From: Planctomycetota bacterium | Lineage (GTDB): Bacteria > Planctomycetota > Phycisphaerae > UBA1845 | Length of the DNA: 64,000 bases | Assembly: GCA_024280855.1 (NCBI GenBank) | Contig: JAJRPG010000024.1 | Location: forward strand, 1-64,000 | Direction: 5' to 3' | Part shown: positions 899 through 57,831 of the stretch, in pieces | How positions within the stretch are numbered: position 1 is the stretch's first letter | How the letters are laid out: each line of letters starts with the position of its first letter | The notes under the pieces: model-generated | The model's database searches: none | Told to the model about the DNA's origin: nothing | The model's input: the letters and a program-made list of their open reading frames with translations, nothing else | Made by a program: the position numbers and the translations under genes

Positions 899-1060
899 GC
901 GATTCCCTGCCTTCTGAAAACCTATAAACACCATCGCCCATGCGCAATTACTGCGCACGCATTCACTACCACAATGAGTTATCGGTTCTTAATTCGAGTT
1001 GCTTTTGAACAGAATTGCCGTAATTGGAGCAAAAACCGCCTATTTTCAAGCTTAATAATA

Positions 1061-3446: not shown

Positions 3447-4279
3447 CAAATACACTCCGCAAATCGATACGACGCCCGCCGGAAAATCATCCAGCCGCAT
3501 ACAAAGAAAACCATCGCCGTCGCACACGCATACAAAAATCCACCAGCCGCGGGCAAATGGCCATAAACAATACAATCTCGATAAGCACCAATCAGCGGAA
3601 CCAGTGGATTTAGTGAAAGGATTAGTGACAATATGCTGTCATCTTTAGGAACAGGAACAACAACCGCAGAGACAAACATGAGCAACTGTACACCTACGCC
3701 GGCAATCTGACGGACGTCGCGATAAAACAAGTTCGCCATCCCCAGCAGCATCCCCAGGCCAATGGTGAATAACACCTGCACCAAGACAATCACAGGGACA
3801 AACAAGAGCGACGGATGAAGGACAAACTCCCATTCGCCTGTCATATGAAAATAACCCATCAGCGCCACGAGAACAGACATCGCAATACCAAAATCAACTA
3901 ATCCGCTAGCCACGCAAGACAACGGAAAAACCTCACGCGGGAAATATACTTTGGTCACTAAATTACGATTGGCTACTAAAGAGTTTACGCACCCCATTAG
4001 ACTCATGCTGAAAAAAGTCCACGGGACCAGTCCGGTGTACGCAAACAAGGCATAAGGCATATCCACCGCCATGAGCGACGACGCCTGTATCGCGCGGGTA
4101 AACACGAAGGTAAAAACCATCATCATCGAAAGCGGCATCAAAATCGCCCAGGCGACGCCGAGCAAAGATTGCTTGTACCGAACCCGAATATCTCGCCAGG
4201 TCAGGCTCCACAGCAAATGTCGATATCGAAGCCAATCGAACATGGACGAATCGGAATGAGTTGCCATCTGAGCGCGCAC
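3446..4279 (-). CDS. wzm: Wzm-type polysaccharide ABC transporter permease
   Basis: A 277-residue ABC-2 type membrane protein with about six hydrophobic segments. The amphipathic N-terminal stretch LLWSLTWRDIRVRYKQSLLG is typical of Wzm/TagG/KpsM permeases, and GMANLFYRDVRQI lies before the last helices. GTG 4279 has AGAGGA ten bases upstream; ATG 4267 is the alternative and would remove four residues. The stop overlaps the start of the Wzt ATPase by one base, so the two subunits are made in coupled fashion. It forms the inner-membrane channel for the glycan built by the adjoining glycosyltransferases. Confidence 0.92.
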   Translation of the reverse strand: MRAQMATHSDSSMFDWLRYRHLLWSLTWRDIRVRYKQSLLGVAWAILMPLSMMMVFTFVFTRAIQASSLMAVDMPYALFAYTGLVPWTFFSMSLMGCVNSLVANRNLVTKVYFPREVFPLSCVASGLVDFGIAMSVLVALMGYFHMTGEWEFVLHPSLLFVPVIVLVQVLFTIGLGMLLGMANLFYRDVRQIAGVGVQLLMFVSAVVVPVPKDDSILSLILSLNPLVPLIGAYRDCIVYGHLPAAGGFLYACATAMVFFVCGWMIFRRASYRFAECI

Positions 4280-4497
4280 TGTAGGTGATTCCTCTGATAA
4301 ATAAAATCCCGTCCTTCACACGCCGGTTTATCGGTCTCCCACAATCGCGTCTTTGCTAGAGCAAGACCAATTTACGCTCATGAATTTCGTGAATACCTGG
4401 ATTCGGGAACGAAAAAACAGGATAGGTAAGTTCCGATAACAATTGCAGATATTGCTAATAGCGGCCCCAAGAGCAGTTGTTAGGATGTTTATTGGGA

Positions 4498-5511
4498 TTA
4501 AGGCTCTGAACGTAATCGGCGGGTCATCAATCTCTCAATCGCCTCTGCTGGACTTTCGCCTTCAAAAAGAACGGCGGAGATGGCTTCGACAATGGGCATT
4601 TCAACTTCATGCTTATTGGCTAACTCGACAATACTGCGGGTGGTGGGAATCCCCTCAATCACCGAAGCCGTCGTAGCTAGCACCTGCTCGGTAGTTTCAC
4701 CCCGGCCTATACGCTCGCCAGCCGAACGGTTTCGGCCTACTTTTGACACGCACGTCGTGAATAAATCGCCTACCCCAGCTAGGCCTCGAAATGTCTCTGG
4801 ATGGGCATCGAAAACTTCCCCTAACCGGGCAATTTCTACCAGGCCGCGAGTTAGCAAGGACGCTTTCGCGTTATCGCCTGCGCCAATGCCGTCACAAATA
4901 CCTGCGGCAATAGCGATCACATTTTTCGCAGCGCCAGCTAACTCGACGCCAACGTGGTCCGTGCTGGAATAAACACGCACATATGACGTACTAAATGATT
5001 GCTGCACAAGCTTAGCTACGGACTCATCATCCGATGCTACCACGAGGCTCGCCGGTTTATGGGCCGCCACTTCCGACGCGATGCTAGGCCCTGACAAACA
5101 CGCCGTCGAAACATGACTCAGGCACGCCTTCATAATAGCTGATGGCAACAGCAACGTGGTTATTTCGATCCCCTTAGCGACGCTCACAATCGGTACGCCA
5201 CTCTGAAAATGTCCGGCTAACTTTGACCATATCCCACGCATAAACTGAACTGGTACAGCTGAGACAATTAATTCCGCGCCGCTAAATGCGATGTCGGCAT
5301 CATTAGTAACCTTTAGAGAATCCGGAAACGAAAACCCCGAAAGATACTTCTTATTCTCGCGGTCCCGACAAAGCGATTCGACATGCGCCGGGCTACGTCC
5401 CCAAAGCGTTACGTTGATGCCCTGCTCGCATAATATCAATGCGCACACTGTCCCCATCGCACCATCACCGACTACACAAGCTCTGGAAATCGGAATAGAC
5501 ATGGCGTTCAC
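4498..5511 (-). CDS. gpsA: Glycerol-3-phosphate dehydrogenase [NAD(P)+]
   Basis: A 337-residue enzyme that reduces dihydroxyacetone phosphate to sn-glycerol 3-phosphate for phospholipid synthesis. The Rossmann loop is VVGDGAMGTVCA near residue 15 (GxGxxG read as GDGAMG). VSVAKGIE, LSGPSIASEV, the catalytic-Lys segment AGAAKNVIAIAAG, and GLAGVGDLFTTC follow in the normal order, and the length is normal. The first start is GTG 5511 and ATG 5502 is equally possible; an AGGA precedes both at imperfect spacing. The gene lies on the same strand upstream of the polysaccharide exporter genes with a 218-base gap, and downstream of two small exported proteins. It is a housekeeping gene whose place here may be accidental. 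Confidence 0.95.
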   Translation of the reverse strand: MNAMSIPISRACVVGDGAMGTVCALILCEQGINVTLWGRSPAHVESLCRDRENKKYLSGFSFPDSLKVTNDADIAFSGAELIVSAVPVQFMRGIWSKLAGHFQSGVPIVSVAKGIEITTLLLPSAIMKACLSHVSTACLSGPSIASEVAAHKPASLVVASDDESVAKLVQQSFSTSYVRVYSSTDHVGVELAGAAKNVIAIAAGICDGIGAGDNAKASLLTRGLVEIARLGEVFDAHPETFRGLAGVGDLFTTCVSKVGRNRSAGERIGRGETTEQVLATTASVIEGIPTTRSIVELANKHEVEMPIVEAISAVLFEGESPAEAIERLMTRRLRSEP

Positions 5512-5550
5512 AAATCCTGACGTCGTGATATCGAAGAAACCGCGCGACGC

Positions 5551-5727
5551 CTAGACGAGATTAAACGCACCAAATACGAAATCGGAAATGAACGTGCCCA
5601 CAATTTGAGTGGTCAATCCAGCTACGACAGAGTTCGTATCAAACGAACAGCCACCAGCCTGAAATAACATCCCCGCAGTGATAATAAGTGAAGCCTTTTG
5701 CGCATACATTGATAATCGTCGTTTCAT
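5551..5727 (-). CDS. Small lipoprotein of unknown function (58 aa)
   Basis: From ATG 5727 the protein begins MKRRLSMYAQKAS, then a hydrophobic stretch ending AGGCSF, which is a good lipobox with the acylated Cys at about residue 29. The mature part is only about 30 residues and ends in a hydrophobic, Phe-rich tail (FISDFVFGAF). Frames further upstream to 5787 are open but would put a polar stretch before the signal. The size and layout resemble the 69-residue exported protein at 24526-24735, although the sequences are not clearly alignable. It lies in line between the SH3 protein gene and gpsA. I recognise no function. Confidence 0.6.
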   Translation of the reverse strand: MKRRLSMYAQKASLIITAGMLFQAGGCSFDTNSVVAGLTTQIVGTFISDFVFGAFNLV

Positions 5728-5800
5728 AAAACCAAGGCCACCTTCCATCATATTTGTATTACACAACAAGTCGCGGTCTTGCGACATCTTTCATGAAGCA

Positions 5801-7045
5801 TCAATTATTATCATTCGACGTCGCGGGATTCAATGCCACTAATTCGCTGGCAACATAGATTGGGACAGAATTTACACTGCCCGACTGCAAACGCTTGGAC
5901 GATGCGCGAACGCCGACATATCGCCCGATGAAATCGCTGACGTTTATTTCCGAACGAGCAGGAATCTCGACGTAGCCAATCGTTCGGGCAGTCATACCGG
6001 AGGTATCCACTAATCGCAACCGCCGTGGCCGCACGGTCGCGGGATACAAAGCGCTCTCACGCAACTCGCCCTGAATATCTAACCCTAGCGGCGCTGGCGG
6101 ATCAACCGAATGGATCGAACCTCGCTGCACTAAAAATTGCCGTCGCTTCTCATCCGTTTTCTCATTCATGGTTCGCAAACTGCGAACCGTACCAGCCAAG
6201 CTAGTCATTTCTTCAATCTGTCGCAAACGCCCAGCCGCATACTTTTTGGAAAATTGGTCCTCATCCTGAGAAGCAATGGTCTTATATTTTCCTATCAGCG
6301 AACCAAAATTTCGACTAAGTAATGGCTTTTCCAATTCCGTTTTGAGCGGAGCCTCAAGAGCTTCCAGTGATCGCCGATGAGGCGTAGGCTCCATATAACC
6401 AAACGGTGAAGATCTACCATCATCATCCGATGTTTTTACCTTCTCATCACTATCTGCAGTTTCACCAGTCGAGTTTTTTTGGCTGTTGATAGCCTCTTCT
6501 TGTACAGGTGTACTCCCCACAACCGGAGTTGAAGAGTCCTGACCAGAAGTGACTGGCTCTATGAATTTTTTACTGACCCAAAGCGTAGCACCGTCGGGAG
6601 GCGTGATGCGCAGAAAGCCATCAGGATTACGACCTAAAACCGTAACCTCGTCACCTTTGGATAGCTGAACCTGTACGGTGTACTTGCTGGAATTCAGAAG
6701 AGAACCAGCGCGAACGCGGACATTCTTTCCATTAACAACGCCACGCTTGCTATCTGCGGTATCGACATAATCGCCAGAAATCAGGCTAAATGTAGAAGCT
6801 GGCGGCGTAATCGCGTACCAATCGTCCTTTTCACCTACGATCTGCACACGTTCACCAGCGCTTAATTTCGCAATGGTGTAATGGTTCAAGCTGGGGCCAC
6901 TGCGCACATACACATCGTCAGCTACGACCTCACCTGCGGAAGGCAGCGAAGCTTGCGTCGCTTGCACGGGCATAAAAAGCAATAGCGACCAAGTAGTTAA
7001 AATAGTAAAAACAAGTTGACCGTATCGAAGACGTGCGCACAACAT
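5801..7045 (-). CDS. Exported protein with two bacterial SH3 domains
   Basis: A 414-residue protein with a Sec signal peptide (hydrophobic core LVFTILTTWSLLLFMP, cut likely near residue 32). Two SH3b repeats follow: one with DDVYVRSGPSLNHYTIAKL (about 40-95) and a second with NGKNVRVRAGSLLNSSKYTV (about 103-165), each with the V-R-x-G-P/S signature. After them come a Ser/Thr/Asp-rich linker (about 170-220), a charged, probably helical region, and a C-terminal stretch with VRPRRLRLVDTSG that looks beta-rich. SH3b domains in exported bacterial proteins usually bind peptidoglycan or other envelope polymers, so an envelope role is inferred. GGGAGG stands eight bases before the ATG. It heads a minus-strand run leading into gpsA and is divergent from pabB. 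Confidence 0.8.
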   Translation of the reverse strand: MLCARLRYGQLVFTILTTWSLLLFMPVQATQASLPSAGEVVADDVYVRSGPSLNHYTIAKLSAGERVQIVGEKDDWYAITPPASTFSLISGDYVDTADSKRGVVNGKNVRVRAGSLLNSSKYTVQVQLSKGDEVTVLGRNPDGFLRITPPDGATLWVSKKFIEPVTSGQDSSTPVVGSTPVQEEAINSQKNSTGETADSDEKVKTSDDDGRSSPFGYMEPTPHRRSLEALEAPLKTELEKPLLSRNFGSLIGKYKTIASQDEDQFSKKYAAGRLRQIEEMTSLAGTVRSLRTMNEKTDEKRRQFLVQRGSIHSVDPPAPLGLDIQGELRESALYPATVRPRRLRLVDTSGMTARTIGYVEIPARSEINVSDFIGRYVGVRASSKRLQSGSVNSVPIYVASELVALNPATSNDNN

Positions 7046-7127
7046 GTCTAGCCACCTCCCTGTGTCGAAATCCGTAGAAGTTTACATTACACTAAAGCAA
7101 TGAAAACTCTATCCCTCAAGGCACGAA

Positions 7128-8633
7128 GTGTCAATCCGAGATAAGCCACATGCGGGTCTGCAATCGTCGCGAATTCTGATATACTACGACGACAAAATTA
7201 TGATGTACGCGCCAAATACAACTCACACCTCACTCATCGTCGAACCCGTCTCATCCACGCTTTCTCCAGATGAGGTAGTTGTGAGTTTTTGCCGACTGCG
7301 CGAACCTGCCATTCTGGAAAGCCTTATCCAGCCACATACTTATGCACGATTTTCGATTTTTGCGTTTGATCCTGTCGATGATTTCACAACTAAAATATCT
7401 GACGCAAGCTGCCCGTTTCAACGGCTCGCAGAGCGCGTCGCACCCCATACTACGACGGCAGCCAGCCCTTCCGGATTCCCTTTTCACGGAGGCTGGATTG
7501 GATATTTTACTTACGAAGCTGGAGTGCTTACAGGAAAAAACATCGCATCCGCGCGCCCCTCCCACCACTTGACGGACCTCGCCCTAGCTAATTTCAAGCT
7601 CTACGACACAGCCGCAGTCTATGACCACGACGCACGGCAATGGTTCGCAGTCGCCGTAAACCTGGCGACTTCGAGAACCGCTATGGCTGAACGCATTCAA
7701 ACTATCACTACGTTGTTACAACAGGCGCCAAGCGCCATCGCCACTTACGATTGCCATCCACCAACTCCGTCGCGCGTGCGCTCGAACATGACGTATGACC
7801 AATACATTCAAAAAGTTCTTCGGGCCAAAGCTTACATCGCAGCCGGGGACATTTTTGAAGTCAATCTATCGCAGCGGTTCGAGGTTCAGGTTGATGCCTC
7901 GCCCGAAGACATTTATCGAAGACTCCGAGCCGCTAGCCCTTCGTCTCACGCCGCATTCCTCCCCTGGCGAAATATGGCTGTCATGTCCTCGTCACCGGAG
8001 TTATTTCTACAATTGGCCGATGGCCATGTAGTTACGCGCCCCATCAAAGGAACCAGCCCCCGAGGCAGCGACGACGTATCCGACATTTATAATCGTCAAG
8101 CATTAGCCGCCAGCGAAAAAGACCGTGCGGAATTAACGATGATCGTCGATCTCATGCGCAACGACCTTGGCCGAGTTTGCGAATATGGTAGCGTTATTGT
8201 GCGTGAATCTGCGACGATTGAATCCCTGCCTCATGTGTTCCATCAGGTAGCGGCGGTCGAAGGCAAGCTAAAATCGAACGCCACCTGGCTCGAATTACTT
8301 CGGGCCACGTTCCCAGGCGGTTCGATTACCGGCGCGCCTAAAATTCGTGCTATGCAAATAATCAACGAACTGGAACAATCGCCACGAGGCGTATATTGTG
8401 GCTCTATAGGGCTGATCGGATTAGACGGAAGCATGTCTCTTAACATCGCTATTCGCACGATGGTCCAACAAGGCAGCACGGTTCGTTTCGATGCCGGCGG
8501 TGCGATAGTAGCCGATAGCAACCCGCACCAGGAATACGAGGAAATCATGGCTAAGGCAAAAGGTATGATGCAGGCACTAAACTGCACGATACACCCAAGC
8601 CCCATACGCAATCAGGAGTTGACACCCGCGTGA
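7128..8633 (+). CDS. pabB: Aminodeoxychorismate synthase component I
   Basis: A 501-residue chorismate-using enzyme of the TrpE/PabB family. The core carries AGDIFEVNLSQRFEV, ELFLQL, the motif RPIKGTSPRG, DRAELTMIVDLMRNDLGRV, FPGGSITGAPKIRAM and FDAGGAIVADS. The Lys of PIKGT, which forms the covalent intermediate in PabB and is Ala in anthranilate synthase, points to aminodeoxychorismate (folate pathway) rather than tryptophan. The N-terminal domain has GGWIGYFTYEAG. GTG 7128 follows AAGG at six bases; the double ATG at 7200/7203 is the alternative and would remove a 24-residue extension with no family similarity. It overlaps pabC by four bases (GTGA). No amidotransferase subunit (pabA) is nearby. 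Confidence 0.93.
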   Translation: MSIRDKPHAGLQSSRILIYYDDKIMMYAPNTTHTSLIVEPVSSTLSPDEVVVSFCRLREPAILESLIQPHTYARFSIFAFDPVDDFTTKISDASCPFQRLAERVAPHTTTAASPSGFPFHGGWIGYFTYEAGVLTGKNIASARPSHHLTDLALANFKLYDTAAVYDHDARQWFAVAVNLATSRTAMAERIQTITTLLQQAPSAIATYDCHPPTPSRVRSNMTYDQYIQKVLRAKAYIAAGDIFEVNLSQRFEVQVDASPEDIYRRLRAASPSSHAAFLPWRNMAVMSSSPELFLQLADGHVVTRPIKGTSPRGSDDVSDIYNRQALAASEKDRAELTMIVDLMRNDLGRVCEYGSVIVRESATIESLPHVFHQVAAVEGKLKSNATWLELLRATFPGGSITGAPKIRAMQIINELEQSPRGVYCGSIGLIGLDGSMSLNIAIRTMVQQGSTVRFDAGGAIVADSNPHQEYEEIMAKAKGMMQALNCTIHPSPIRNQELTPA

Positions 8634-9502
8634 CACCAATCATTTATTACAATGGCGAGTTCATCCCCGAAAACCAGGCCCTATTGCCTGTCCACGATGG
8701 TGGCTGGTTACACGGCGCAGGTCTTTTTGAAACCATGCGAGCGGAAAACAGTCGAATTTTTCGGGTCGAATCACATGTTGAAAGACTTCTTCAATCTGCT
8801 GAAAAACTTCTTAGACCTGTATCGAGAAGTGAATTGCCTTCTCGTGTGGACTTTCTCGACTTGCTGGAACGTAATGAACTCAAAGTTGCCCGCGTCAGAA
8901 TGACCGTGTCCATTGGCTCTGTGCATTCGCCAACCCCTACCGCAGACCAGCCACCACCGCTAACCGTCTGCGTCACGACAGCCCCCCTTTCACCGCCGAA
9001 TCAATCACTTTACGAAAACGGCGTGCAGGTCTGCATTTCCAGCTACAAAGTTTCGCCCCAAGACCCATTAGCCGGACACAAAACGACTGCGTATCTTGGC
9101 CGACTGCTGGGACTGCGGCAAGCGCAACAATGTAAATGCTTTGAGGCGTTATGGTTTAATACCAACAACATGTTAGCCGAGGGATGTATCACTAACGTCT
9201 TCATTATCAAAGATGGCCAGTTAAAAACGCCGCCGTTGGACACGCCGGTTCTAGGCGGTATCGCGCGAAACGTCGTTCTCGACATCGCAAAAAATTTAGA
9301 CCTGAATCCTATTCAAACGGCGCTGAATATTAACGACCTTCTCGATGCCGACGAACTTTTTCTCACCAACGCCATCATCCAGGTTCTGCCCGTCATTCGC
9401 GTCGAACAACACGACATCGCTGAGGGGCGCGTAGGCAAAATTACTGGAAAATTTCTCAAAGCCTTTCGTGCGCAGACTAAAAAGGAATGTACACAGGAAT
9501 GA
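8630..9502 (+). CDS. pabC: Aminodeoxychorismate lyase (class IV aminotransferase)
   Basis: A 290-residue fold-type IV PLP enzyme. It begins YYNGEF with DGGWLHGAGLFETMR (residues 23-37), then the catalytic Lys in AGHKTTAYLG (K151), NNMLAEGCITNVF and VLGGIARNVVL. ADELFLTNAI near residue 240 completes the fold. Class IV covers PabC, D-alanine and branched-chain aminotransferases. The GTGA overlap with a PIKGT-type pabB makes aminodeoxychorismate lyase, which releases pyruvate to give p-aminobenzoate, the best call. It starts with GTG. Its stop overlaps the start of the NIF3 gene by ATGA, so pabB, pabC and that gene form one translationally coupled unit. Confidence 0.88.
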   Translation: MTPIIYYNGEFIPENQALLPVHDGGWLHGAGLFETMRAENSRIFRVESHVERLLQSAEKLLRPVSRSELPSRVDFLDLLERNELKVARVRMTVSIGSVHSPTPTADQPPPLTVCVTTAPLSPPNQSLYENGVQVCISSYKVSPQDPLAGHKTTAYLGRLLGLRQAQQCKCFEALWFNTNNMLAEGCITNVFIIKDGQLKTPPLDTPVLGGIARNVVLDIAKNLDLNPIQTALNINDLLDADELFLTNAIIQVLPVIRVEQHDIAEGRVGKITGKFLKAFRAQTKKECTQE

Positions 9503-30192: not shown

Positions 30193-32406
30193 TTATGGAC
30201 AACTGGGAACACATGTACCTGTTGAGCAATCCGTACCAAAGGGATACGGTTGGCTGGAAAATCCCAGAACAACACTGAGTATATCATCGCCAGCAATGAT
30301 TGTGTTGGCTGTTTGAGGTACGAGGTCTACTCTGGCTTTATGAGGCGCGAATGGACTTAGCTGAAATGTGAGTACGACGGCAAGTACGTCGTTTGCAGTC
30401 ACAAGCCCGTCAGGAGCCGCCCAATCTATACCATTGAAAACCCCAATCACATCTCCGTACTCGCGCGGCGATGGTACACTAGTCGTTACCGCAGCAAATG
30501 GCGTCGAAAATGCAATATCATCCAGCGTTGACTCAACATCGTAAGAGTTACCCGGAGCGAATTCACATCCGCGAACATGTATAACGGTTTCTGGCCAAAC
30601 ACGAAATTCCGGAGCGTTAACCAATTGAGCGAAAAATCCCGAAGCACCTTGGTCCTGAACATTACCTACGTATTTGAAACCGCCTCCTGGAACAGCTACC
30701 CGAATAGCGACAGTTTCACTTCCGTTTCCAGAAGGATCAAAAGAAATATATCGATCTTTGGAGATGTTAAGTGGCGCAACCGCAGCTACTGGCGGTAAAG
30801 CTGCAGGTGGATCCGTGACTGCAACGCTTAGTCTGTAAAGCTGCGTCTGCCCATCTGCAGTATCAAGAACTCGCCCGCTCACGCGAATAAAATAAGACCC
30901 GGCGACTGCTAATCGTACATCAGAAAGAACCTCTTCGCTTCCGATAGCCAAGTCAGATTCTGCCATAGGCACGCCACAAGTCGCACCACAGGTTCCCCCC
31001 GGACACTCTAGAGACGAAGTACACATAAGACCGTTAGCACCACCGCCAATACATATATCGTTAGGCAAGCAATCCACATTAGTGGCACAAACATCGCCTA
31101 TATTATCACCAGTCGCACAAACAAACCCGGCGGTGTTGAAAAGCTGAAGCTTCAGGTCTGAAGCCATCGTACTATTGATCGGGATACCTGGGGCTCCAGG
31201 GCAACTGCCATCGCCGTTTTGCGGGCTATTGTCATAGGCAATCCCACGAGGCGATGCAAGGATTGTCACACCAGTTTCTTCGGTAACGGTAAACTGAAAC
31301 CAATCTTCTTCGCTATCGTCATCGATACTCAAATTATCGGTGAAGTTAATATTGGGTGACGGTACGAGCCCCACAATCTGTGAGTCTCCGATATTAAAAA
31401 TACCCAAGTCTGTCGCTTCGGCCACGGTGTTATCAGGTTCAAATGGGTCGCCATGCTGCCGTTGGGCGGCGCGTACATCATCGTGCTGCAAACCATCAAA
31501 AGAAGTGTTGATGAACGGTTCCATGAGATGATTACTATTGGAAGAACACAGATGGAAAAGACCAATGCCGTGTCCATGCTCGTGCATTAACACATTCCGA
31601 AAGAATCTGAAATTGTTGGCGCTATTCGCCCAATTATTATCCGTGTCTATTACCATGTCTGCGTTGGTGGGGAAAAAGTTAAAAGCCAGGATATTCGATC
31701 CAGTCCCCCCATCGATTGATCGACCTGAAATTCGAATGTCACCACGAGTGGCACTTCCTGGACTTGTGTTAAAAGCCGCGCCATCATCCCAGTCCACGCC
31801 CGCTTGAGTAATGCGCACATATGTATTGCCGTTAAGCTCTGTCCAACGCTCTAGAAACTGCTCGACTAAACTTACCCATGTTGCTCTACCGCCAGCGGCT
31901 GCAAACTGAGCATCAAAAGTAGCAAACATATCACTACTGGCGCCAGCACCAGTACCGAAACTAGGGATGAATGTTCCGTCAGGAACTAAACTCCATGTAA
32001 GTGTTAATCCTTCTCCAACCGGCGTCCAACTTGTCCCAGTAAAAAAAGCAAGAGGGTTAGGTGGTGGTGGATTTCCTAGAAGTGGGTACTTCAATAGAAT
32101 AGCCGCTTCTTCTTCAGGTGTCCCATGCGAGAAACAGGTAAATGCAGGCTCCGTAGCAGCAAGGTGAAATGTCCGCAAGAATCCATCAAACTCATCCAAG
32201 TTTGATAGCGAACCTGCTAACAGCGCTTCATTCGCGCGATCACTTACACGGACATTTGCCCCTGATAATTGAGCCAGCCAAGAATCGCCTGACGATAATT
32301 CCACCATCGGCGATGACGGATGGCTAGACATCATGTGCGGAGCCATACAAAATGCTGCGAAAATCGCAACAAGACCACTAATTTTCACCAAAACGTGCCG
32401 TTTCAT
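30193..32406 (-). CDS. Secreted matrixin-type zinc metalloprotease with PPC and dockerin-like domains
   Basis: A 737-residue secreted protein with a signal peptide (ISGLVAIFAAFCMAP). The catalytic domain carries HEHGHGIGLFH (275-285), which fits HExxHxxGxxH with Glu276 catalytic, and a Met-turn at LMEP (M295), as in metzincin and matrixin peptidases. DPFEPDNTVAEATDLG starts a pre-peptidase C-terminal (PPC) domain, with a Cys-rich insertion (CPGGTCGATCG). The last 170 residues are a beta domain followed by two EF-hand-like segments (LVTANDVLAVVLTFQLS; GDDILSVVLGF) and a CVPSCP tail. The giant repeat protein at 52618-57831 ends in the same module. It probably degrades extracellular protein. How it is held at the surface is unknown, since no cohesin partner is seen. 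Confidence 0.88.
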   Translation of the reverse strand: MKRHVLVKISGLVAIFAAFCMAPHMMSSHPSSPMVELSSGDSWLAQLSGANVRVSDRANEALLAGSLSNLDEFDGFLRTFHLAATEPAFTCFSHGTPEEEAAILLKYPLLGNPPPPNPLAFFTGTSWTPVGEGLTLTWSLVPDGTFIPSFGTGAGASSDMFATFDAQFAAAGGRATWVSLVEQFLERWTELNGNTYVRITQAGVDWDDGAAFNTSPGSATRGDIRISGRSIDGGTGSNILAFNFFPTNADMVIDTDNNWANSANNFRFFRNVLMHEHGHGIGLFHLCSSNSNHLMEPFINTSFDGLQHDDVRAAQRQHGDPFEPDNTVAEATDLGIFNIGDSQIVGLVPSPNINFTDNLSIDDDSEEDWFQFTVTEETGVTILASPRGIAYDNSPQNGDGSCPGAPGIPINSTMASDLKLQLFNTAGFVCATGDNIGDVCATNVDCLPNDICIGGGANGLMCTSSLECPGGTCGATCGVPMAESDLAIGSEEVLSDVRLAVAGSYFIRVSGRVLDTADGQTQLYRLSVAVTDPPAALPPVAAVAPLNISKDRYISFDPSGNGSETVAIRVAVPGGGFKYVGNVQDQGASGFFAQLVNAPEFRVWPETVIHVRGCEFAPGNSYDVESTLDDIAFSTPFAAVTTSVPSPREYGDVIGVFNGIDWAAPDGLVTANDVLAVVLTFQLSPFAPHKARVDLVPQTANTIIAGDDILSVVLGFSSQPYPFGTDCSTGTCVPSCP

Positions 32407-50158: not shown

Positions 50159-51036
50159 CCAATTTGCCTGATGAGGACTTCGGCCAAGGACTTTCCCACT
50201 GATTCGGGGAGATGCCCTCGCAATGTCTCTGTCGCAACGCGCGATCCGCCTTCGCTAAACAATTGCCCTGACAACACGACTTCGTCGCCATCAAGATGAG
50301 CTAGAGCGCCCACTGGCGTATGGCATCCGGCTCCGATATGTCGAAGAAAGGCTCGCTCCGCAGTAACGATTTTTCGTGACGGGGCATGGTCGAGCATGCT
50401 AGCTATTCCCCTTGCGTTACCGTCGTCGCGGGTTTGCAAAGCCATCGCCCCTTGTGCCGGTGCGGGAACGAATACGTCCGTTGGCAGATCAATGCGATAC
50501 GTTGGATCGATACCTAATCTTTTTAGTCCAGCAGCAGCTAAGACCACGCCATCAAACTCGCCCAGGCTTAGCTTCTCAATTCGTGTCGGCACGTTGCCGC
50601 GAAGAGGGACTATTTCTACGTTTCCCAACCGACGAAACTGCGCAGCCCGACGCGGGCTACTGGTTCCAATCCGAAAGCCTTTAGGCAAATCGTGAACATC
50701 AACCGTAACATTCGTCACCAGCGTATCGTTGGCTACTTCTCTGACGGGGATGGCAGCCACGATCAATCCAGACGTCATCGCTGTCTGAAGGTCTTTATAG
50801 CTATGCACTGCGAGATCAATATCACTACTGAGGAGCGCTTGTTCAATCGTCCCCACAAAGCCGCCGACCGGCCAACGTGAATCAATGGGCTGACGGGGAG
50901 CGATATCGCCGTGTGTTTTAATAATAACCAGCTCTATTTCGAGTTTTGGTTCATGAGAAATGAGTTGTTGCGAGACCCAGTTTGCCTGCCAAAGCGCTAA
51001 TTCGCTACCGCGCGTGCCGACACGAATCTTATTCAC
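50155..51036 (-). CDS. hemC: Hydroxymethylbilane synthase
   Basis: A 293-residue porphobilinogen deaminase. IRVGTRGSELALWQANWV starts the protein. HSYKDLQT carries the catalytic Asp (82), GTSSPRRAAQ the substrate Arg pair, and GAGCHTPVGALA the Cys (238) that holds the dipyrromethane cofactor. GTG 51036 overlaps the hemL stop by GTGA, so the two are coupled. It polymerises four porphobilinogens in the cytoplasm. Confidence 0.96.
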   Translation of the reverse strand: MNKIRVGTRGSELALWQANWVSQQLISHEPKLEIELVIIKTHGDIAPRQPIDSRWPVGGFVGTIEQALLSSDIDLAVHSYKDLQTAMTSGLIVAAIPVREVANDTLVTNVTVDVHDLPKGFRIGTSSPRRAAQFRRLGNVEIVPLRGNVPTRIEKLSLGEFDGVVLAAAGLKRLGIDPTYRIDLPTDVFVPAPAQGAMALQTRDDGNARGIASMLDHAPSRKIVTAERAFLRHIGAGCHTPVGALAHLDGDEVVLSGQLFSEGGSRVATETLRGHLPESVGKSLAEVLIRQIG

Positions 51037-52339
51037 TTAATGATCTCCGCAAAACTTTCTGCGGCTGCCTGGCAAACGCGGTCTATTATTTCGTCATCGT
51101 GTGCGGATGATACGAACATCGCTTCATAGCCTGACGGCGGTAGCCACACACCTCGATTAAGCATGGCGTGAAAAAAACGTGCGTATAAATCGTGATCGCA
51201 CGCTGTAGCGTCTTCCATATTTTTCACGGGGGCAGACGAAAACGCCATGCCGAATAGGCCACCAACAAAACTGGTTTGGATAGCGACGCCAGCCTGCGCT
51301 GCGGCAGCATCTAGCCCGGCGCATAATCGCTGCGAGCTTGCGGCGAGTGAATCGTAAAAACCTTCTTGCTGACAAAGTGAAAGCGTGGCTAACCCTGTGG
51401 CCATGGCGACAGGATTTCCGCTTAGTGTGCCTGCCTGGTACATAGGTCCCAGCGGACTAACCAGTGACATCAACTCGCGCGAGCCACCGTATGCTGCAAC
51501 TGGCATGCCGCCCCCGATGACTTTTCCCAAGCACGTTATATCCGGCTGAACACCGCATATATTTTGATTCCCCCCCACGCGACACGAAACCCTGTCATCA
51601 CTTCATCAAAAATTAATAAACAATTATGTTGATCGCAAAGTGATCGCAAGCCAGCGAGGAAACCATTAGCCGGTGAAACAAATCCCATGTTGCCTGCGAT
51701 AGGTTCGACGATGATCGCAGCGACCTGGTTCGTATGGGCTTCCAGAATTTGAGTGAGCGTTTCCAAGTCGTTGTACGGCGCTAGCAAAGTTGTCTGAGCT
51801 ATCGTTTTCGGTACACCAGCTGAATCCGGAGTAGCACACGCCACAGCCCCCGAACCTGCAGCGACAAGCAGCGAATCCACATGGCCATGATATCCTCCGA
51901 TGAATTTGATAATGCTATCGCGCTTCGTCGCAGCGCGGGCAAGTCGTATAGCGCTCATCGTGGCTTCGGTGCCGCTATTTACGAAACGCAACATTTCCAG
52001 CGATGGAATCGCACTTACAATCATCTCGGCTAGTGCTTGTTCAGCTGCGCAGCAGGCGCCAAAACTAATACCGTCAGCGGCGGCTTGGTTAATAGCTTGT
52101 AAGACTTGGGGATGGGCATGACCAACTATGGCAGCCCCCCAACTGCCCACCAAGTCGATATATTTCTGGCCGTCTACGTCAGTCACAAAGGGACCGTTCG
52201 CGCGGGCGATAAATCGCGGGACACCGCCAACGGCTTTCATGGCGCGAACCGGGCTGTTTACACCGCCAGGCATCAAACGCTGGGCGGCTGAGAAGAGAGA
52301 TGTTGATTGCGACAACTCAGTGGAACGTACTCGCTGCAT
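51033..52339 (-). CDS. hemL: Glutamate-1-semialdehyde aminotransferase, frameshifted in a G7 run
   Basis: The full GSA aminomutase is spread over two frames. Residues 1-257 from ATG 52339 include LMPGGVNSPVRAM, NSGTEATMSAIRLARA, GGYHGHVD and LLIFDEVMTGFRVAWGG. The frame then reads 10 wrong codons to a stop. The other frame continues without a gap as NQNICGVQPDITCLGKVIGG, with the PLP lysine, MYQAGTLSGNPVAMATGL and the normal C-terminus to 51033. The shift lies in seven G (51570-51576 on the complement); eight would restore the gene, as would a -1 slip on G-GGG-GGA. It makes 5-aminolevulinate in the C5 haem pathway. A sequencing error, a real mutation and programmed slippage all fit the sequence. 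Confidence 0.9.
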
Positions 52340-52617: not shown

Positions 52618-55600
52618 TTATGGACAAGGCACAGGACACCCTGTTGCACTGTATGGGTCCAATTGGAAGGCCTTAACCACGAACAGAATATCGGCGGCAT
52701 TGATGATGCCGTTTGGTTCGCAAGGCGTGATATCAAAAGCTTCGAATGGAATGCCCAATGAGAAGTCCAACTGAAAAGCCAGCACAATGGCCAAAATGTC
52801 AGCAGAACTGACTAACCCATCCGAATTAACGTCACCCCACCCTACCATGTCAACAACGCCCGCAGGTGAAGCAAATAATCCACATATCGCTTCAATAGCG
52901 TATGAACTGTCAGGCCCAGGAACAATATCTATGCCTCGTACAATTACCGAGCCCCAAGTAGCTGGTAACTGTGTCACCGGCATGTCAACGAGTGCGCCGT
53001 TGGCATCGATGAATTTATCGAGGCAAGTCCAGTCCGTGGAAGTCAAACGCAAAGCTACGGGTGCAACAGAGCCTGCCGGTAATGGCGTCACGCGGAATGC
53101 TCTTGGGCCGACCGCTTCAACCAACGGTGCCTGAGGGATAGCCGTTCCGGCGCATACGCCTTGATCGCATGTATCACTTTCCGTGCAAACATCTGTGTCG
53201 TCGCACGACGATCCAGTGGCTATAAAGTTACTGTCACATGCACCTACGCCGTCACAAATGTCCGCGTTGTCGCATTGATCTGTACTTGGATCACCACAGG
53301 AAACGCCCATAGCTTCAAAGTTAGACAAGCAAACTCCGACGTTATCACAAGTATCGGGATTATCACACTGCGTATTTGCTGGATCGCCACAAGGGAAGCC
53401 AGGCCCTTCAAAATTGTCCAGACATGCACCAGTGCCATCACAGGTATCCGGGTTGTTGCAATCAGTATTTGCAACGTCGCCGCATGAAAATCCAATTACC
53501 TCGAAATTACTTTGACACGAACCTGTGCCGCTACAGGTGTCAGGATTGTCGCAGCCCGAATCTGCGGGATCACCACATGCCGTGCCGCCAGCAGTAAAGT
53601 TTGATAAGCACATGGAATTACCGTCACAAGTATCAGGATTATCGCATTGCGTGCTGGTGGGATCGCCACAAGGGAACCCGGCGACCCTTGACGGATGATC
53701 ACAAATGCCAGTCGCACACATATCTAACGTGCAAGCATTTCCATCGTCAGTACACGAGACACCGTCATTTTGGTTGTTTGGGTCACATAGCCCCGTACCA
53801 GTACACACGTCGGCGTTGTCACAATCCGAAGTGCTGGGATCACCGCAGGCAAGCCCTGCTGCTTCAAAATTGTCTAAACATGCCCCACCGCCATCACATG
53901 TATCAGGATTATTACATTGCGTATTAGCTGGGTCGCCGCAAGGGAAACCGTTAATTTCAAGGTTTGCCAAGCAACTGCCCCCGCCATCACAGGTGTCTGG
54001 ATTATCACATCCGGTATCCAACGGATCGCCACAGGACAAGCCCACTGGTTGGAAGTTGGACAGACACATGCCCGCACCATCACAACTATCGGGATTATTA
54101 CAGTCCGTGCTTGTAGGATCGCCACAAGCCGTACCCGAAAATTCAAAGTTAGACACGCACACGCTATTGCCATCACAGGTGTCAGGGTTGTCGCATTGCG
54201 TACTAGCTCCGTTACCACAAAGCGCGCCAGCCGCAGCTGAAGGATGTACGCAAACACCTATCGCACATTGGTCGAGCGTACATTCATTGCCATCGTCAGT
54301 ACACATCAATCCGTCAGGCTGATTGTTCACGTTGCACAGACCTGATCCATCACAAATATCGGCATTATCGCAATCCGATGTAGACGGATCACCGCAGGTA
54401 ACACCTGCCGGTACAAAATTTGTTCGACACAAACCAGCGCCGTCGCAAGTGTCCGCATTATCACATTCGGTCATCAGCGTGTTGCCACAAGACGTCCCTA
54501 CGGATTTGTTGGGGTGTGTACACGCGCCAGTGAAGCAAACGTCATCCGTACAGTCATTAGCATCGTCGGTGCAAAGTTCGCCGTCTGATTTATGATTGAC
54601 TTCGCACACGCCAAAGCCATTACATGTATCAGGTGCATCGCAATCAGTATCAGCGATATCACCACACAGTACGCCGGCGGATTGAGATGACCAATCGGTA
54701 CTCGTCAATAAAGGAATGCATATTTCGCAATCGTTAGTCGGGTTAGACTCGCCTGGCGAATAGCAAATGCCTCCGATGACACATCCATCTACGGTGGAAA
54801 TGTTTAACACGGTGTCGCCTACGTTATCCATGAAACCGGCGATTCGAATTAAATACGTTTGGCTATCGACCGCGTTAAACGCCAACGAGGAAAGCAAGCC
54901 ATTGCCATTGTCGTCATCACAAGCAATCTCTGTGCCTCCGCACGCATCGTAAACGGTCAATACAGTGTCATTAAATGGCAACAGCAAGCTACCATTCGTA
55001 TTCATCACGACCGGGCCTGTGCAAGTCGCCACATAGAAAAACCATATGTCATTGTTAGAATCGAATTGGCATGTCGCTTCGTCGTCATCTGGGCCACGGT
55101 TTTCGTTATTGCTATTGTTGACGCCATCAAAGACCTCTACGGCGTTGACGCAATCATCGTTGCATGTTGGATCAATGGTTCCTACGCACATACCTGCCGC
55201 GTCGCACATGTCTACACCAATGCCTGCCCCGCCAGTTCCCGTGCATGGATCGCCATCGTCACAAAGAGTTCCCACGGCTACGACATCCCAATCATTCGGC
55301 AAAGTAGCCGCAGAACAAATTTGACAACTATTCGCGGGATTGATCTGTCCATCCGTGTAACACACGCCGGCAATTAAACAAGAACCCGCTTGAAGGATAT
55401 TATCGCATTGAGTTAGCGCTTCGTTGCAACTATCCGTCGTACATGTCAGGTTATCATTGCAATCTGTTGATGTTGCGCCGCCGCAAGCCCCACCAACGCA
55501 AGTCGCGCCAGCATTACAGAACGATCCATCATCGCAGTTGGTGCCGTCCAACATGTCATTAGCCAGGCAAGAGCCAAAACCGTTGCAGGTGTCCGCACTG

Positions 55601-57831
55601 GTACATGCAGTACTTGATGGGTCTCCACATGCCGCCCCTGATGCGACTAGGTTAGGTAGGCATCCGCCCGTACCATCGCAAGCGTCCGCACTATCACACT
55701 CATTCGATGTTGGATCGCCACAGGCCGTACCTGCAATTAACACCGGATGCGTACAAATGCCCGTAGCACAGACATCGCCTCGACACTCATTTCCATCATC
55801 GGTACATGCCGTACCATCTGCGATACGATTACCTGCACAAACGCCCCCCCCATCACAGGTATCCGGATTATCACATTCCGACATACCAGGATTTCCACAG
55901 GCCGTACCTGCGAAAACAAAATTTCCATTACAGACGCCCGTACCATCACAGGTGTCCGGATCGTCGCATTGATTACCTACTTGATTGCCACAGGGCAGTC
56001 CCGAAGGTGAAACATTTGGCAGACATGCCCCCGATCCATCGCAGGTATCTGCATCGTCACAATCCGTATCAGACGGGTCTCCGCACGAAGTACCAGAAGC
56101 CGTTAAGTTATTCAAACACGAACCGGCGCCATCGCAGGAGTCCGCGCCATTACAATCAGTGGTTATCGCGCTGCCACATGCTGCGCCAGAAGGCTGAAGA
56201 TTTGTCGCACAAACTCCCGTGCCATCACAGGTATCTGCGTTATTGCATTCTGTTGTTGTTGGATCACCACACGTCGTGCCCGCCGCAGCTAGAGGGTGAG
56301 CGCACTGCCCTGACTGGCAAACGTCAGTTCGACATTCGTTGCCATCATCCGTACATGCTGTTCCGTCAGCTACGTTATTGCCACCACAGACGCCGGCTCC
56401 ATCACACGCATCAGCATTGTCACATTCTGAAACACTAGGGTCACCGCAGGTTGTTCCAGCCGGCAATGCATTGGATTGGCATAAACCACTGCCATTGCAC
56501 GAATCCGGGTCGTCACATTGGTTACCAACCGGATTCCCACAAGGCAATCCAGTTGGTTCATTATTCACTAAACATGCACCAATTCCGTCACAAGTGTCAG
56601 GATTGTCGCACTCTAAATCCGTTGGATCGCCGCAGGATGTGCCAGCAACAGGGATGTTCGCAAGGCAAACACCATTACCATCGCAGGTGTCGGCCGCGTT
56701 GCACTCAGTATTAGAGGGATTTCCACATGACGTTCCAGCCGTTTGTGGATTGGCTCGACACGTGCCCAAGCCATCACAAGTATCCGCATTATCGCATTCG
56801 GAAGTTGTGGGATCACCACAAGCCGCACCAGATGCTAGTGATCGATCGACACACGTACCAGCGCCATCACATGTGTCCTGAGCATCACATTCTCCGGCCG
56901 CAGCGTTACCGCACATCGCACCATCCGCCTGAGGCTGTTGCGTAACCATACCAGTTCCAGCATCGCACACACCAGTTGTACATTCATTGCCGTCATCGAT
57001 GGTCGTCGTGGCGCCAGTTGTCGGGTTGCAGCATTCGCTCGCCGGGTTAAATGTCGGCGTATTAACGCAAGTATTGTTAACGTCACAAACATCTGTCGTA
57101 CAAGTACTACCATCGTCACAATCCGCGTTATTCTGGCAGGCTATTGAAATCCTCGCTGGAGTTAAAGTAAGCGGCGTGAGTACCGTACCAGCGAAATCCA
57201 GCATGAAGCTGATCTGCGGATTATTTTTGAACGCAATCGTATAGGTTCCTGCAGCTGTAGCTGGAACATCGACTAATAGCGTGCCACCATAGCGAGCCGT
57301 GCCGTCGTCTGGCACTCCCGTTGTCGCGCCTGGTCCAGTCGTGCAAAAATATTCGTAATCAGGCAGGATCGTCGCGACCCCACAAAGCGGATCAAAACCC
57401 GCAACAACTAGCCCGGAATTATCAATGCAAAACTCACCAGCAGGGCAAGACGAAATATCGCATCGAGGGCCATTGGGATCGACCAACTGGCCAACAGTGC
57501 AACGCTTGAGGATAACAAACGCGCCAGCCGTGGCATCCGGGGTGGTAAAGGCAGTCAGAGGCGCCCCCGTGCCGCTAGAAAAGGATGCAGAGTCAAAGGC
57601 TACCTGGTAAGTTCCAAGCAGAGGCAGACCATCTAAATTCACATCCCACCCCGAAATCATGATCGCTAACTCGACGCGTTGCCCGCCGCCTTGCAAAATG
57701 ATTTCATCACCCGCAATCGTATGCGCACCATCCGCACCGATCGGGACAAAAGCGATTTCCTGAGCGCGACCAGTCGCAGCTAAGGTAAACATGACACCAG
57801 CGACCGCCAACCAATTTCCATACCTCGACAT
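52618..57831 (-). CDS. Giant secreted Cys-rich repeat protein (1737 aa) with dockerin-like end
   Basis: It has a signal peptide (WLAVAGVMFTLAATGRAQ) and a beta-sandwich-like N-terminal domain to about residue 225. Two blocks of Cys-rich repeats follow (about 229-755 and 1054-1535). The unit is about 24-28 residues, of the form CGDPxxTxCDNxDTCDGxGxC, with about 26 copies. After every five units or so comes a CTDDGNEC...HP spacer. Between the blocks (about 889-1040) is a PPC-like domain with NDIWFFYVATC. The C-terminus (about 1567-1737) is a beta domain plus two EF-hand-like segments, GDVNSDGLVSSADILAIVLA and NAADILFVVKAFQLD, then a CPVPCP tail, as in the metalloprotease at 30193. AGGAG precedes the ATG. 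It is probably a long, disulfide- or calcium-stiffened surface fibre. Function unknown. Confidence 0.85.
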   Translation of the reverse strand: MSRYGNWLAVAGVMFTLAATGRAQEIAFVPIGADGAHTIAGDEIILQGGGQRVELAIMISGWDVNLDGLPLLGTYQVAFDSASFSSGTGAPLTAFTTPDATAGAFVILKRCTVGQLVDPNGPRCDISSCPAGEFCIDNSGLVVAGFDPLCGVATILPDYEYFCTTGPGATTGVPDDGTARYGGTLLVDVPATAAGTYTIAFKNNPQISFMLDFAGTVLTPLTLTPARISIACQNNADCDDGSTCTTDVCDVNNTCVNTPTFNPASECCNPTTGATTTIDDGNECTTGVCDAGTGMVTQQPQADGAMCGNAAAGECDAQDTCDGAGTCVDRSLASGAACGDPTTSECDNADTCDGLGTCRANPQTAGTSCGNPSNTECNAADTCDGNGVCLANIPVAGTSCGDPTDLECDNPDTCDGIGACLVNNEPTGLPCGNPVGNQCDDPDSCNGSGLCQSNALPAGTTCGDPSVSECDNADACDGAGVCGGNNVADGTACTDDGNECRTDVCQSGQCAHPLAAAGTTCGDPTTTECNNADTCDGTGVCATNLQPSGAACGSAITTDCNGADSCDGAGSCLNNLTASGTSCGDPSDTDCDDADTCDGSGACLPNVSPSGLPCGNQVGNQCDDPDTCDGTGVCNGNFVFAGTACGNPGMSECDNPDTCDGGGVCAGNRIADGTACTDDGNECRGDVCATGICTHPVLIAGTACGDPTSNECDSADACDGTGGCLPNLVASGAACGDPSSTACTSADTCNGFGSCLANDMLDGTNCDDGSFCNAGATCVGGACGGATSTDCNDNLTCTTDSCNEALTQCDNILQAGSCLIAGVCYTDGQINPANSCQICSAATLPNDWDVVAVGTLCDDGDPCTGTGGAGIGVDMCDAAGMCVGTIDPTCNDDCVNAVEVFDGVNNSNNENRGPDDDEATCQFDSNNDIWFFYVATCTGPVVMNTNGSLLLPFNDTVLTVYDACGGTEIACDDDNGNGLLSSLAFNAVDSQTYLIRIAGFMDNVGDTVLNISTVDGCVIGGICYSPGESNPTNDCEICIPLLTSTDWSSQSAGVLCGDIADTDCDAPDTCNGFGVCEVNHKSDGELCTDDANDCTDDVCFTGACTHPNKSVGTSCGNTLMTECDNADTCDGAGLCRTNFVPAGVTCGDPSTSDCDNADICDGSGLCNVNNQPDGLMCTDDGNECTLDQCAIGVCVHPSAAAGALCGNGASTQCDNPDTCDGNSVCVSNFEFSGTACGDPTSTDCNNPDSCDGAGMCLSNFQPVGLSCGDPLDTGCDNPDTCDGGGSCLANLEINGFPCGDPANTQCNNPDTCDGGGACLDNFEAAGLACGDPSTSDCDNADVCTGTGLCDPNNQNDGVSCTDDGNACTLDMCATGICDHPSRVAGFPCGDPTSTQCDNPDTCDGNSMCLSNFTAGGTACGDPADSGCDNPDTCSGTGSCQSNFEVIGFSCGDVANTDCNNPDTCDGTGACLDNFEGPGFPCGDPANTQCDNPDTCDNVGVCLSNFEAMGVSCGDPSTDQCDNADICDGVGACDSNFIATGSSCDDTDVCTESDTCDQGVCAGTAIPQAPLVEAVGPRAFRVTPLPAGSVAPVALRLTSTDWTCLDKFIDANGALVDMPVTQLPATWGSVIVRGIDIVPGPDSSYAIEAICGLFASPAGVVDMVGWGDVNSDGLVSSADILAIVLAFQLDFSLGIPFEAFDITPCEPNGIINAADILFVVKAFQLDPYSATGCPVPCP
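53216..57145 (-). repeat. Coding tandem repeats, about 75-85 bases per unit, with a five-unit super-repeat
   Basis: The DNA of the two Cys-rich blocks repeats with a period of about 75-85 bases, and each unit contains a TGTGATGG-like core (complement strand). Units have drifted, so third positions vary while Cys, Asp and Gly codons are kept, which indicates selection on the protein. Units just before a spacer often carry LPCGNxVGNQCDDPD or FPCGDPANTQC, so blocks of five appear to have been copied as a whole. This is not a CRISPR array. Confidence 0.75.

What the first reader, a model, noticed from the sequence alone, without database searches (positions are those of the whole stretch)
52618..57831. 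1737-residue Cys-rich protein built from a five-unit super-repeat
About 26 units of the form CGDP..T.CDN.DTCDG.G.C lie in two blocks, broken by CTDDGNEC...HP spacers after every five units or so. Units at the same place relative to a spacer resemble each other more than their neighbours do (for example LPCGN.VGNQC in block I, FPCGDPANTQC in block II). So sets of five appear to have been duplicated whole. With six Cys or so per unit and many Asp in loops, it may be a long rigid fibre. I know of no described function for this layout.
Basis: partly seen in the sequence, partly recalled or inferred. Interest (0 to 1): 0.75.

Follow-up and report, generated by a model that had tools for sequence, protein, structure and literature searches.

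The report
Bacterial disintegrin-arm repeat rod protein
A planctomycete makes a large secreted protein from 26 copies of a small disulphide-linked module that closely resembles the calcium-stabilised "arm" of animal ADAM and snake-venom disintegrin domains, and its length differs between genera by whole six-module blocks, which suggests an adjustable extracellular rod.

Summary
The ORF (52618-57831, minus strand, 1737 aa) has exactly 26 units of 31 aa in two blocks plus five 28-aa spacers. Each unit has four Cys, not six. The super-repeat (5 units + 1 spacer, 183 aa) is real: similarity peaks at a lag of six modules in all 13 blocks tested from seven genomes. In a tree of 141 units from five genomes, units group by super-repeat position (33 changes against about 83 expected), not by genome. 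Orthologues in other genera mostly differ by whole UUUUUS blocks; short paralogues lack the super-repeats.

In fold and calcium-ligand motif they resemble the ADAM/P-III venom disintegrin arm. A template-free three-unit model (pLDDT 96) matches only ADAM and venom disintegrin structures on structural re-alignment. 23 of 26 units keep the published Ca-site III motif with one loop residue fewer. Sister arrays in the same bacterial family carry that motif exactly in 65 of 69 units. The window's own Pfam score is below the curated cut-off.

Best reading: a secreted, Ca- and disulphide-stiffened rod with an N-terminal domain, a mid-chain galactose-binding-like domain and a C-terminal dockerin. The rod role is inferred.

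The parts
52618..57831 (-). whole ORF, 1737 aa, secreted multi-domain Cys-rich protein
   Evidence: orthologues of the same layout at 81-87% identity in two congeneric genomes
57763..57831 (-). aa 1-23, likely signal peptide (MSRYGNWLAVAGVMFTLAATGRA)
   Evidence: sequence; hydrophobic stretch from aa 7; inferred, no signal-peptide predictor was available
57124..57759 (-). aa 25-236, N-terminal domain shared with several paralogues and orthologues; no Pfam or PDB family
   Evidence: 34-71% identity across relatives; no significant match; no cohesin match
56914..57120 (-). aa 238-306, two CTDC-like (Dictyostelium repeat) modules
   Evidence: PF00526 20.2 bits, E 5.1e-4, below cut-off 27; paralogue L022 35.2 bits, above cut-off
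55537..56913 (-). aa 307-765, block I: 13 disintegrin-arm-like units and 2 spacers
   Evidence: HMM of ADAM-like arrays 191.7 bits against a maximum of 87.5 in 1000 Cys-preserving shuffles
56272..56820 (-). aa 338-520, super-repeat I.a (5 units + spacer)
55723..56271 (-). aa 521-703, super-repeat I.b (5 units + spacer)
   Evidence: 65% aa identity to I.a; in-register best of 120
56272..56355 (-). aa 493-520, spacer (CTDDGNECRTDVCQSGQCAHP)
55723..55806 (-). aa 676-703, spacer; its RGD tripeptide is absent from orthologues
54820..55161 (-). aa 891-1004, galactose-binding-like domain (GBD_T9SS_assoc PF23759, overlapping PPC-like)
   Evidence: 32.3 bits, above cut-off 27
53206..54666 (-). aa 1056-1542, block II: 13 disintegrin-arm-like units and 3 spacers
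   Evidence: HMM 152.9 bits against a maximum of 77.8 in shuffles; PF00200 23.1 bits, E 1.3e-4, below cut-off 35.1
54490..54573 (-). aa 1087-1114, spacer
54220..54303 (-). aa 1177-1204, spacer, CTDC-like
   Evidence: PF00526 23.2 bits, E 5.9e-5, below cut-off 27
53671..53754 (-). aa 1360-1387, spacer, CTDC-like
   Evidence: PF00526 20.0 bits, E 6.1e-4, below cut-off 27
53671..54219 (-). aa 1205-1387, super-repeat II.a
53206..53670 (-). aa 1388-1542, super-repeat II.b (5 units, shifted by one against II.a; terminal short module instead of a spacer)
53848..54126 (-). aa 1236-1328, three units modelled at pLDDT 96.4
52669..52836 (-). aa 1666-1721, C-terminal dockerin type I domain
   Evidence: 25.2 bits and 23.8 bits when taken by place or segment, above cut-off 22.9; 19.6 bits when the whole protein was scanned

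Best explanation
This is a secreted extracellular rod (spacer) protein. Its two repeat blocks are tandem arrays of a 31-aa, four-Cys module with the fold and calcium-ligand motif of the arm subdomain of ADAM/P-III venom disintegrin domains. Each module probably binds one structural Ca2+ (ligands Asp/Asn10, Asp13 and Asn24 of the unit) and is closed by disulphides, so consecutive modules stack into a stiff, very acidic rod. A CTDC-like spacer follows every five units. The rod separates an N-terminal domain, a mid-chain galactose-binding-like domain and a C-terminal dockerin that may dock it to another surface protein. Its length evolved by gain or loss of whole 5+1 blocks. Shown: module order, super-repeat, block-wise length differences, predicted-fold match, motif. 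Inferred: calcium binding, stiffness, docking, and the biological role as a spacer or matrix protein.
For: Fold: a template-free AlphaFold2 model of three window units with 92 rows has mean pLDDT 96.4. Foldseek's first three hits are VAP1 (prob 0.99), VAP1 and ADAM17, and 8 of its 15 rows are VAP1/ADAM17/ADAM10. All 23 rows of the structural re-alignment are ADAM or venom disintegrin-containing proteins, aligned mainly over the arm and wrist (Z up to 5.2). Motif: 23 of 26 units match C[DN]xx[ED]xCxGx3Cxx[DN] (mean 0.06, maximum 2 in 2000 shuffles), which is the published Ca-site III consensus CDxx(E/D)xCxGx4Cxx(D/N) (PMC4885070) with one loop residue fewer and N allowed for the first D; 17 of 26 match with strict D. 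Sister arrays in the same bacterial family match the consensus exactly in 65 of 69 and 38 of 40 units, score 902 and 673 bits with PF00200, and one of them hits solved disintegrin domains by sequence (E 3e-11). An HMM from those arrays scores the window blocks at 191.7 and 152.9 bits against maxima of 87.5 and 77.8 in 1000 Cys-preserving shuffles. Array L128 has a window-type unit beside ADAM-type units. Length quantum: short forms UUU / USUU, long forms with two or three inserted six-module blocks per array. Secretion and docking: signal-like N-terminus, dockerin above cut-off, GBD above cut-off. Blocks carry 151 acidic against 9 basic residues.
Against: The window protein itself stays below the PF00200 cut-off (23.1 against 35.1 bits); block I and isolated three-unit pieces give no PF00200 match; the genome search with PF00200 gives none in G000. 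A first AlphaFold2 job on 276 aa with 19 rows was poor (pLDDT 52); no Foldseek E-value is below 0.1 and no structural Z exceeds 5.2. AlphaFold2 may recall disintegrin structures from training. The one RGD is not conserved. No cohesin partner was identified for this dockerin, and no conserved neighbours were seen outside the genus.
Confidence: 0.6

Rival explanations
1. Convergent Cys scaffold: the 31-aa unit is a bacterial small disulphide module that merely resembles the disintegrin arm because short Cys- and Asp-rich calcium loops converge. It still works as a stiff extracellular repeat, but is not related by descent to animal disintegrin domains.
For: The unit is only 31 aa. The window-level Pfam score is below the cut-off. 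A PDB profile search with the super-repeat gave no hit and with L076 pairs only a weak match to scytovirin. PF00200 was not found in 246 other genomes of the phylum at E 1e-6.
Against: Cys-preserving shuffles never matched PF00200 (0 of 7) and score far lower with the array HMM. A sister array matches solved disintegrin domains at E 3e-11 and holds the calcium motif exactly.
Confidence: 0.3
2. Adhesin or ligand-binding array: the units, rather than being a passive rod, carry binding surfaces (for glycans or proteins), and the array gives avidity.
For: A galactose-binding-like domain is in the same chain. A lectin (scytovirin) is a weak sequence match of related units. Positions within the super-repeat keep different side chains over genera, as specialised surfaces would.
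Against: Conserved columns of the unit are mainly Cys, Gly and the presumed calcium ligands, and aromatics are few (19 in 946 aa). Not tested directly.
Confidence: 0.25
3. Scaffold of a planctomycete cohesin-dockerin complex ('planctosome'-like), tethering enzymes such as the dockerin-bearing metalloprotease in the same window.
For: C-terminal dockerin, with 29 dockerin matches in the genome at E 0.01, most of them over the cut-off. A metalloprotease-like protein with a dockerin-type tail lies at 30193-32406. A cohesin-dockerin complex was proposed for freshwater planctomycetes (PMC6461901).
Against: Only two cohesin matches over the cut-off in the genome, neither in this protein. No binding partner is known.
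Confidence: 0.2
4. The super-repeat is only an assembly or gene-conversion artefact of a recent tandem duplication.
For: The contig is from a draft genome of 112 contigs.
Against: Copies are only 57-63% identical in DNA. The same module order occurs in two congeneric genomes and the same pattern in four other genera. Units group by phase across genera.
Confidence: 0.01

Closest known systems
Disintegrin domain (Pfam PF00200), arm subdomain (Da) of ADAM proteins and P-III snake venom metalloproteinases
   Same: Cys spacing, Ca-site III ligand motif, predicted fold; sister bacterial arrays match, mostly over profile positions 45-75, far above the cut-off
   Different: Here the arm-like piece alone is repeated 26 times without shoulder, metalloproteinase or ADAM_CR domains; the loop is one residue shorter; window score below the Pfam cut-off
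Dicty_CTDC repeat (Pfam PF00526) of Dictyostelium EcmA/EcmB extracellular-matrix proteins
   Same: Spacers and flanking modules with a CxDGNxCTxDxCxxxTGxC pattern; secreted proteins consisting mostly of Cys-rich repeats (EcmA/EcmB: PMC4406040; that CTDC is the EcmA/EcmB repeat is from own knowledge)
   Different: Used here only as one spacer per five units and at block edges; best window score 23.2 bits, below the cut-off of 27
Dockerin type I proteins of Planctomycetota ('planctosome' proposal, PMC6461901)
   Same: Secreted protein ending in a type I dockerin
   Different: No cohesin found in this protein; rod-like repeat body; no enzyme domain

Membership tests
Pfam PF00200 Disintegrin | score above the curated cut-off (35.1 bits) | tested here: not met
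   Window block II 23.1 bits, E 1.3e-4; block I and 3-unit pieces no match. 6 of 19 homologous super-repeat segments match at E 0.001 or better, best 6.2e-7. Relatives L076, L078, L126, L127, L128 are above the cut-off.
Disintegrin arm (Da) of ADAM / P-III SVMP | Ca-site III consensus CDxx(E/D)xCxGx4Cxx(D/N) | tested here: inconclusive
   Exact consensus 0 in the window; 23 of 26 with the loop one shorter and N allowed for the first D, 17 of 26 with strict D; exact in 65/69 and 38/40 units of sister arrays.
Disintegrin arm (Da) of ADAM / P-III SVMP | arm fold | tested here: met
   As a prediction: template-free model pLDDT 96.4; top Foldseek hits and all 23 re-aligned rows are ADAM/SVMP disintegrin structures, Z up to 5.2.
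Disintegrin arm (Da) of ADAM / P-III SVMP | disulphide pairing and bound calcium | not testable with these tools
   No coordinates accessible; needs experiment.
Disintegrin arm (Da) of ADAM / P-III SVMP | shoulder subdomain (Ca-site II) and ADAM_CR domain next to it | tested here: not met
   No ADAM_CR match in the protein; no shoulder-like segment seen between the units.
Pfam PF00526 Dicty_CTDC (spacers and flanks) | score above the curated cut-off (27 bits) | tested here: not met
   Best 23.2 bits for spacer aa 1177-1204 and 20.2 bits for aa 238-306; paralogue L022 35.2 bits.
Dockerin type I (PF00404) | score above the curated cut-off (22.9 bits) | tested here: met
   25.2 bits by genome search, 23.8 bits as a segment; 19.6 bits in a scan of the whole protein.
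Cohesin (PF00963), considered for the N-terminal domain | match of the profile to aa 25-236 | tested here: not met
   No match there in the genome search or hmmscan.

The most novel reading that the evidence does not exclude
Bacteria of one planctomycete family (and some Myxococcales/Deltaproteobacteria MAGs) use the disintegrin arm, known as an animal and venom module, as the building block of long calcium-stiffened surface rods, up to about 70 modules, some of whose lengths change over evolution in whole six-module steps. This would make the calcium-binding disintegrin arm a stand-alone tandem structural module outside animals.
Probability: 0.4. Interest if true: 0.75.

Novelty: new variant of a known kind. 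Interest (0 to 1): 0.62.

Why it matters
If right, a calcium-stiffened module known from ADAM sheddases and venom metalloproteinases has bacterial tandem arrays, which bears on where the disintegrin domain came from and what it does without an enzyme or an integrin. The clean 5+1 hierarchy, conserved over genera, is a natural test of how protein rods change length in fixed steps. It also gives an uncharacterised giant bacterial protein a concrete, testable structural model.

Tried and rejected
Whole-protein scans of Pfam and NCBIfam gave only weak dockerin and PPC matches, so segments were used. A PDB sequence search with P0001 or with the super-repeat profile gave no relative of the repeat; L076 gave only teneurin and, as a profile, scytovirin at weak E-values. 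The first structure job (nine modules, 19 rows) failed at pLDDT 52 and was not interpreted. Cohesin as the N-terminal fold: no match; a PDB profile search of the domain gave nothing convincing (best E 0.018). Integrin binding through RGD: one RGD, in the spacer at aa 676-703, not present in orthologues. Conserved gene neighbourhood: only within the genus, on one side. Disintegrin family in the wider phylum: none in 246 genomes at E 1e-6 (nothing rang in that call, although the same family rang in 15 of 60 relatives at E 0.001). A search of the myxobacterial phylum could not be run. Paper searches found no report of bacterial disintegrin arrays in the library held; that is not proof of absence.

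Full report
What is there. The ORF at 52618-57831 (minus strand) encodes 1737 aa. Parsing by Cys spacing gives 26 units of exactly 31 aa (C-x7-C-x5-C-x5-C-x10) and five spacers of 28 aa (C-x6-C-x4-C-x4-C-x10): block I UUUUUUSUUUUUSUU (aa 307-765) and block II USUUSUUUUUSUUUUU (aa 1056-1542). Each module has four Cys; the six in the finding is a miscount. Around the blocks lie a signal-like N-terminus, an N-terminal domain (aa 25-236) shared with paralogues, CTDC-like modules (aa 238-306), a galactose-binding-like domain (aa 891-1004, PF23759 32.3 bits, above its cut-off) and a type I dockerin (aa 1666-1721, 25.2 bits).

Is the super-repeat real? Yes. Pairing the five units of set I.a with I.b in register is the best of 120 orders, and II.a with II.b ranks 5 of 120; block I sets against block II sets are not significant inside the window. 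In 13 of 13 blocks from seven genomes the mean identity is highest at, or tied within noise only by lag 12 with, a lag of six modules. A tree of 141 units from five genomes needs 33 changes of super-repeat position against a shuffled mean of 83 (minimum 75), but 80 changes of genome against 84. The window-only tree is weak (31 columns; 11 changes against a mean of 15.8, equal to the shuffled minimum). It also shows that set II.b is shifted by one unit against II.a.

Length changes in whole blocks. The same genome holds a short paralogue of the form UUU ... USUU, and many family members have that short form. The long forms are U(UUUUUS)nUU in block I with n = 2 or 3, and US(UUSUUU)n in block II with n = 2 or 3, followed by UU or UUSUU. 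DNA identity between super-repeats is 57-63% and synonymous codons are mostly randomised, so this is not a recent or assembly duplication. That the short form came first is an inference.

What the unit is. Pfam's Disintegrin family (PF00200) matches window block II below its cut-off (23.1 bits, E 1.3e-4), six of 19 homologous segments at E 0.001 or better, and several relatives far above it. In the same bacterial family two proteins carry 69 and 40 four-Cys modules in tandem and match PF00200 at 902 and 673 bits, mostly over profile positions 45-75, the arm half. One of them hits solved P-III venom disintegrin domains by plain sequence search at E 3e-11. These units fit the published calcium-site III consensus CDxx(E/D)xCxGx4Cxx(D/N) (PMC4885070) exactly in 65 of 69 and 38 of 40 cases. 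In the window, 23 of 26 fit it with one loop residue fewer and N allowed at the first ligand, against at most 2 in 2000 shuffles. An HMM of those arrays scores blocks I and II at 191.7 and 152.9 bits; the best of 1000 Cys-preserving shuffles reach 87.5 and 77.8 (null2 correction off for both). Seven Cys-preserving shuffles gave no PF00200 match. One array (L128) contains a window-type unit followed by ADAM-type units.

Structure. A first job with nine modules and 19 rows failed (pLDDT 52). Three window units with 92 rows gave mean pLDDT 96.4 and pTM 0.74 without templates. Foldseek ranks VAP1 first and second and ADAM17 third, although no E-value is below 0.1; 8 of its 15 rows are VAP1, ADAM17 or ADAM10. 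In the structural re-alignment of Foldseek's own candidates all 23 rows are ADAM or venom disintegrin structures, aligned mainly over arm and wrist, with Z up to 5.2. Such Z values are modest and the module is small, so the agreement of sequence, motif and fold carries more weight than any one score. AlphaFold2 may recall such structures.

How it probably works (inference). The published arm is a rigid, disulphide-bonded piece with a buried structural calcium (PMC4885070). Tandem arms would give a stiff chain; the very acidic blocks (151 acidic, 9 basic residues) fit calcium loading. The spacers resemble the CTDC repeat named for Dictyostelium (PF00526 up to 23.2 bits, below cut-off); Dictyostelium EcmA/EcmB are secreted proteins made mostly of Cys-rich repeats (PMC4406040). 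A secreted rod that holds an N-terminal domain and a galactose-binding-like domain away from a dockerin anchor is the reading I prefer. Calcium binding, stiffness, docking and role are untested here.

Distribution. Of 60 relatives, 15 hold PF00200 matches at E 0.001, all in the window's own family; none of the 24 genomes from other families of the order, none of 246 further genomes of the phylum (at the stricter E 1e-6) and none of 14 control genomes do. Window-type super-repeat profiles ring in 34 of 51 family genomes. Named relatives are mostly Planctomycetota (Phycisphaerae) and Deltaproteobacteria/Myxococcales MAGs. No paper on bacterial disintegrin arrays was found in the library.

Verdict. 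It is best called a new variant of a known kind: it looks like a disintegrin arm repeated as a rod. Formal Pfam membership is not met by the window protein, so common descent with the animal domain is probable but not settled.

Noticed in passing
window 51033-52339 (-): The glutamate-1-semialdehyde aminotransferase (hemL-like) gene next door is split into two overlapping frames (51033-51578 and 51536-52339): a frameshift or an assembly error.
   Followed up: no
window 30193-32406 (-): A metalloprotease-like protein (HEHGHGIGLFH) with a dockerin-type C-terminus lies in the same window, a possible partner in a cohesin-dockerin system.
   Followed up: no
L127 (G012:C67), 703-9336 (-): A 2878-aa protein with about 69 tandem 32-aa units that match the ADAM Ca-site III consensus almost perfectly (PF00200 902 bits).
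   Followed up: partly
L126 (G017:C63), 3-5531 (-), and L128 (G013:C31), 2-2272 (+): Disintegrin-arm arrays joined to FG-GAP repeats (L126) or a VWA domain (L128), domain types that in animals occur in integrins.
   Followed up: no
L053-L056 (Phycisphaerae MAGs): Arrays of 14-17 units without spacers, following several CTDC-like modules and a gap of about 237 aa.
   Followed up: no
L025 3103-4476 and 4528-5955 (+): Paralogues with a similar N-terminal domain end in an IPTL-CTERM sorting motif instead of a dockerin (the motif was confirmed by Pfam in the first only).
   Followed up: no
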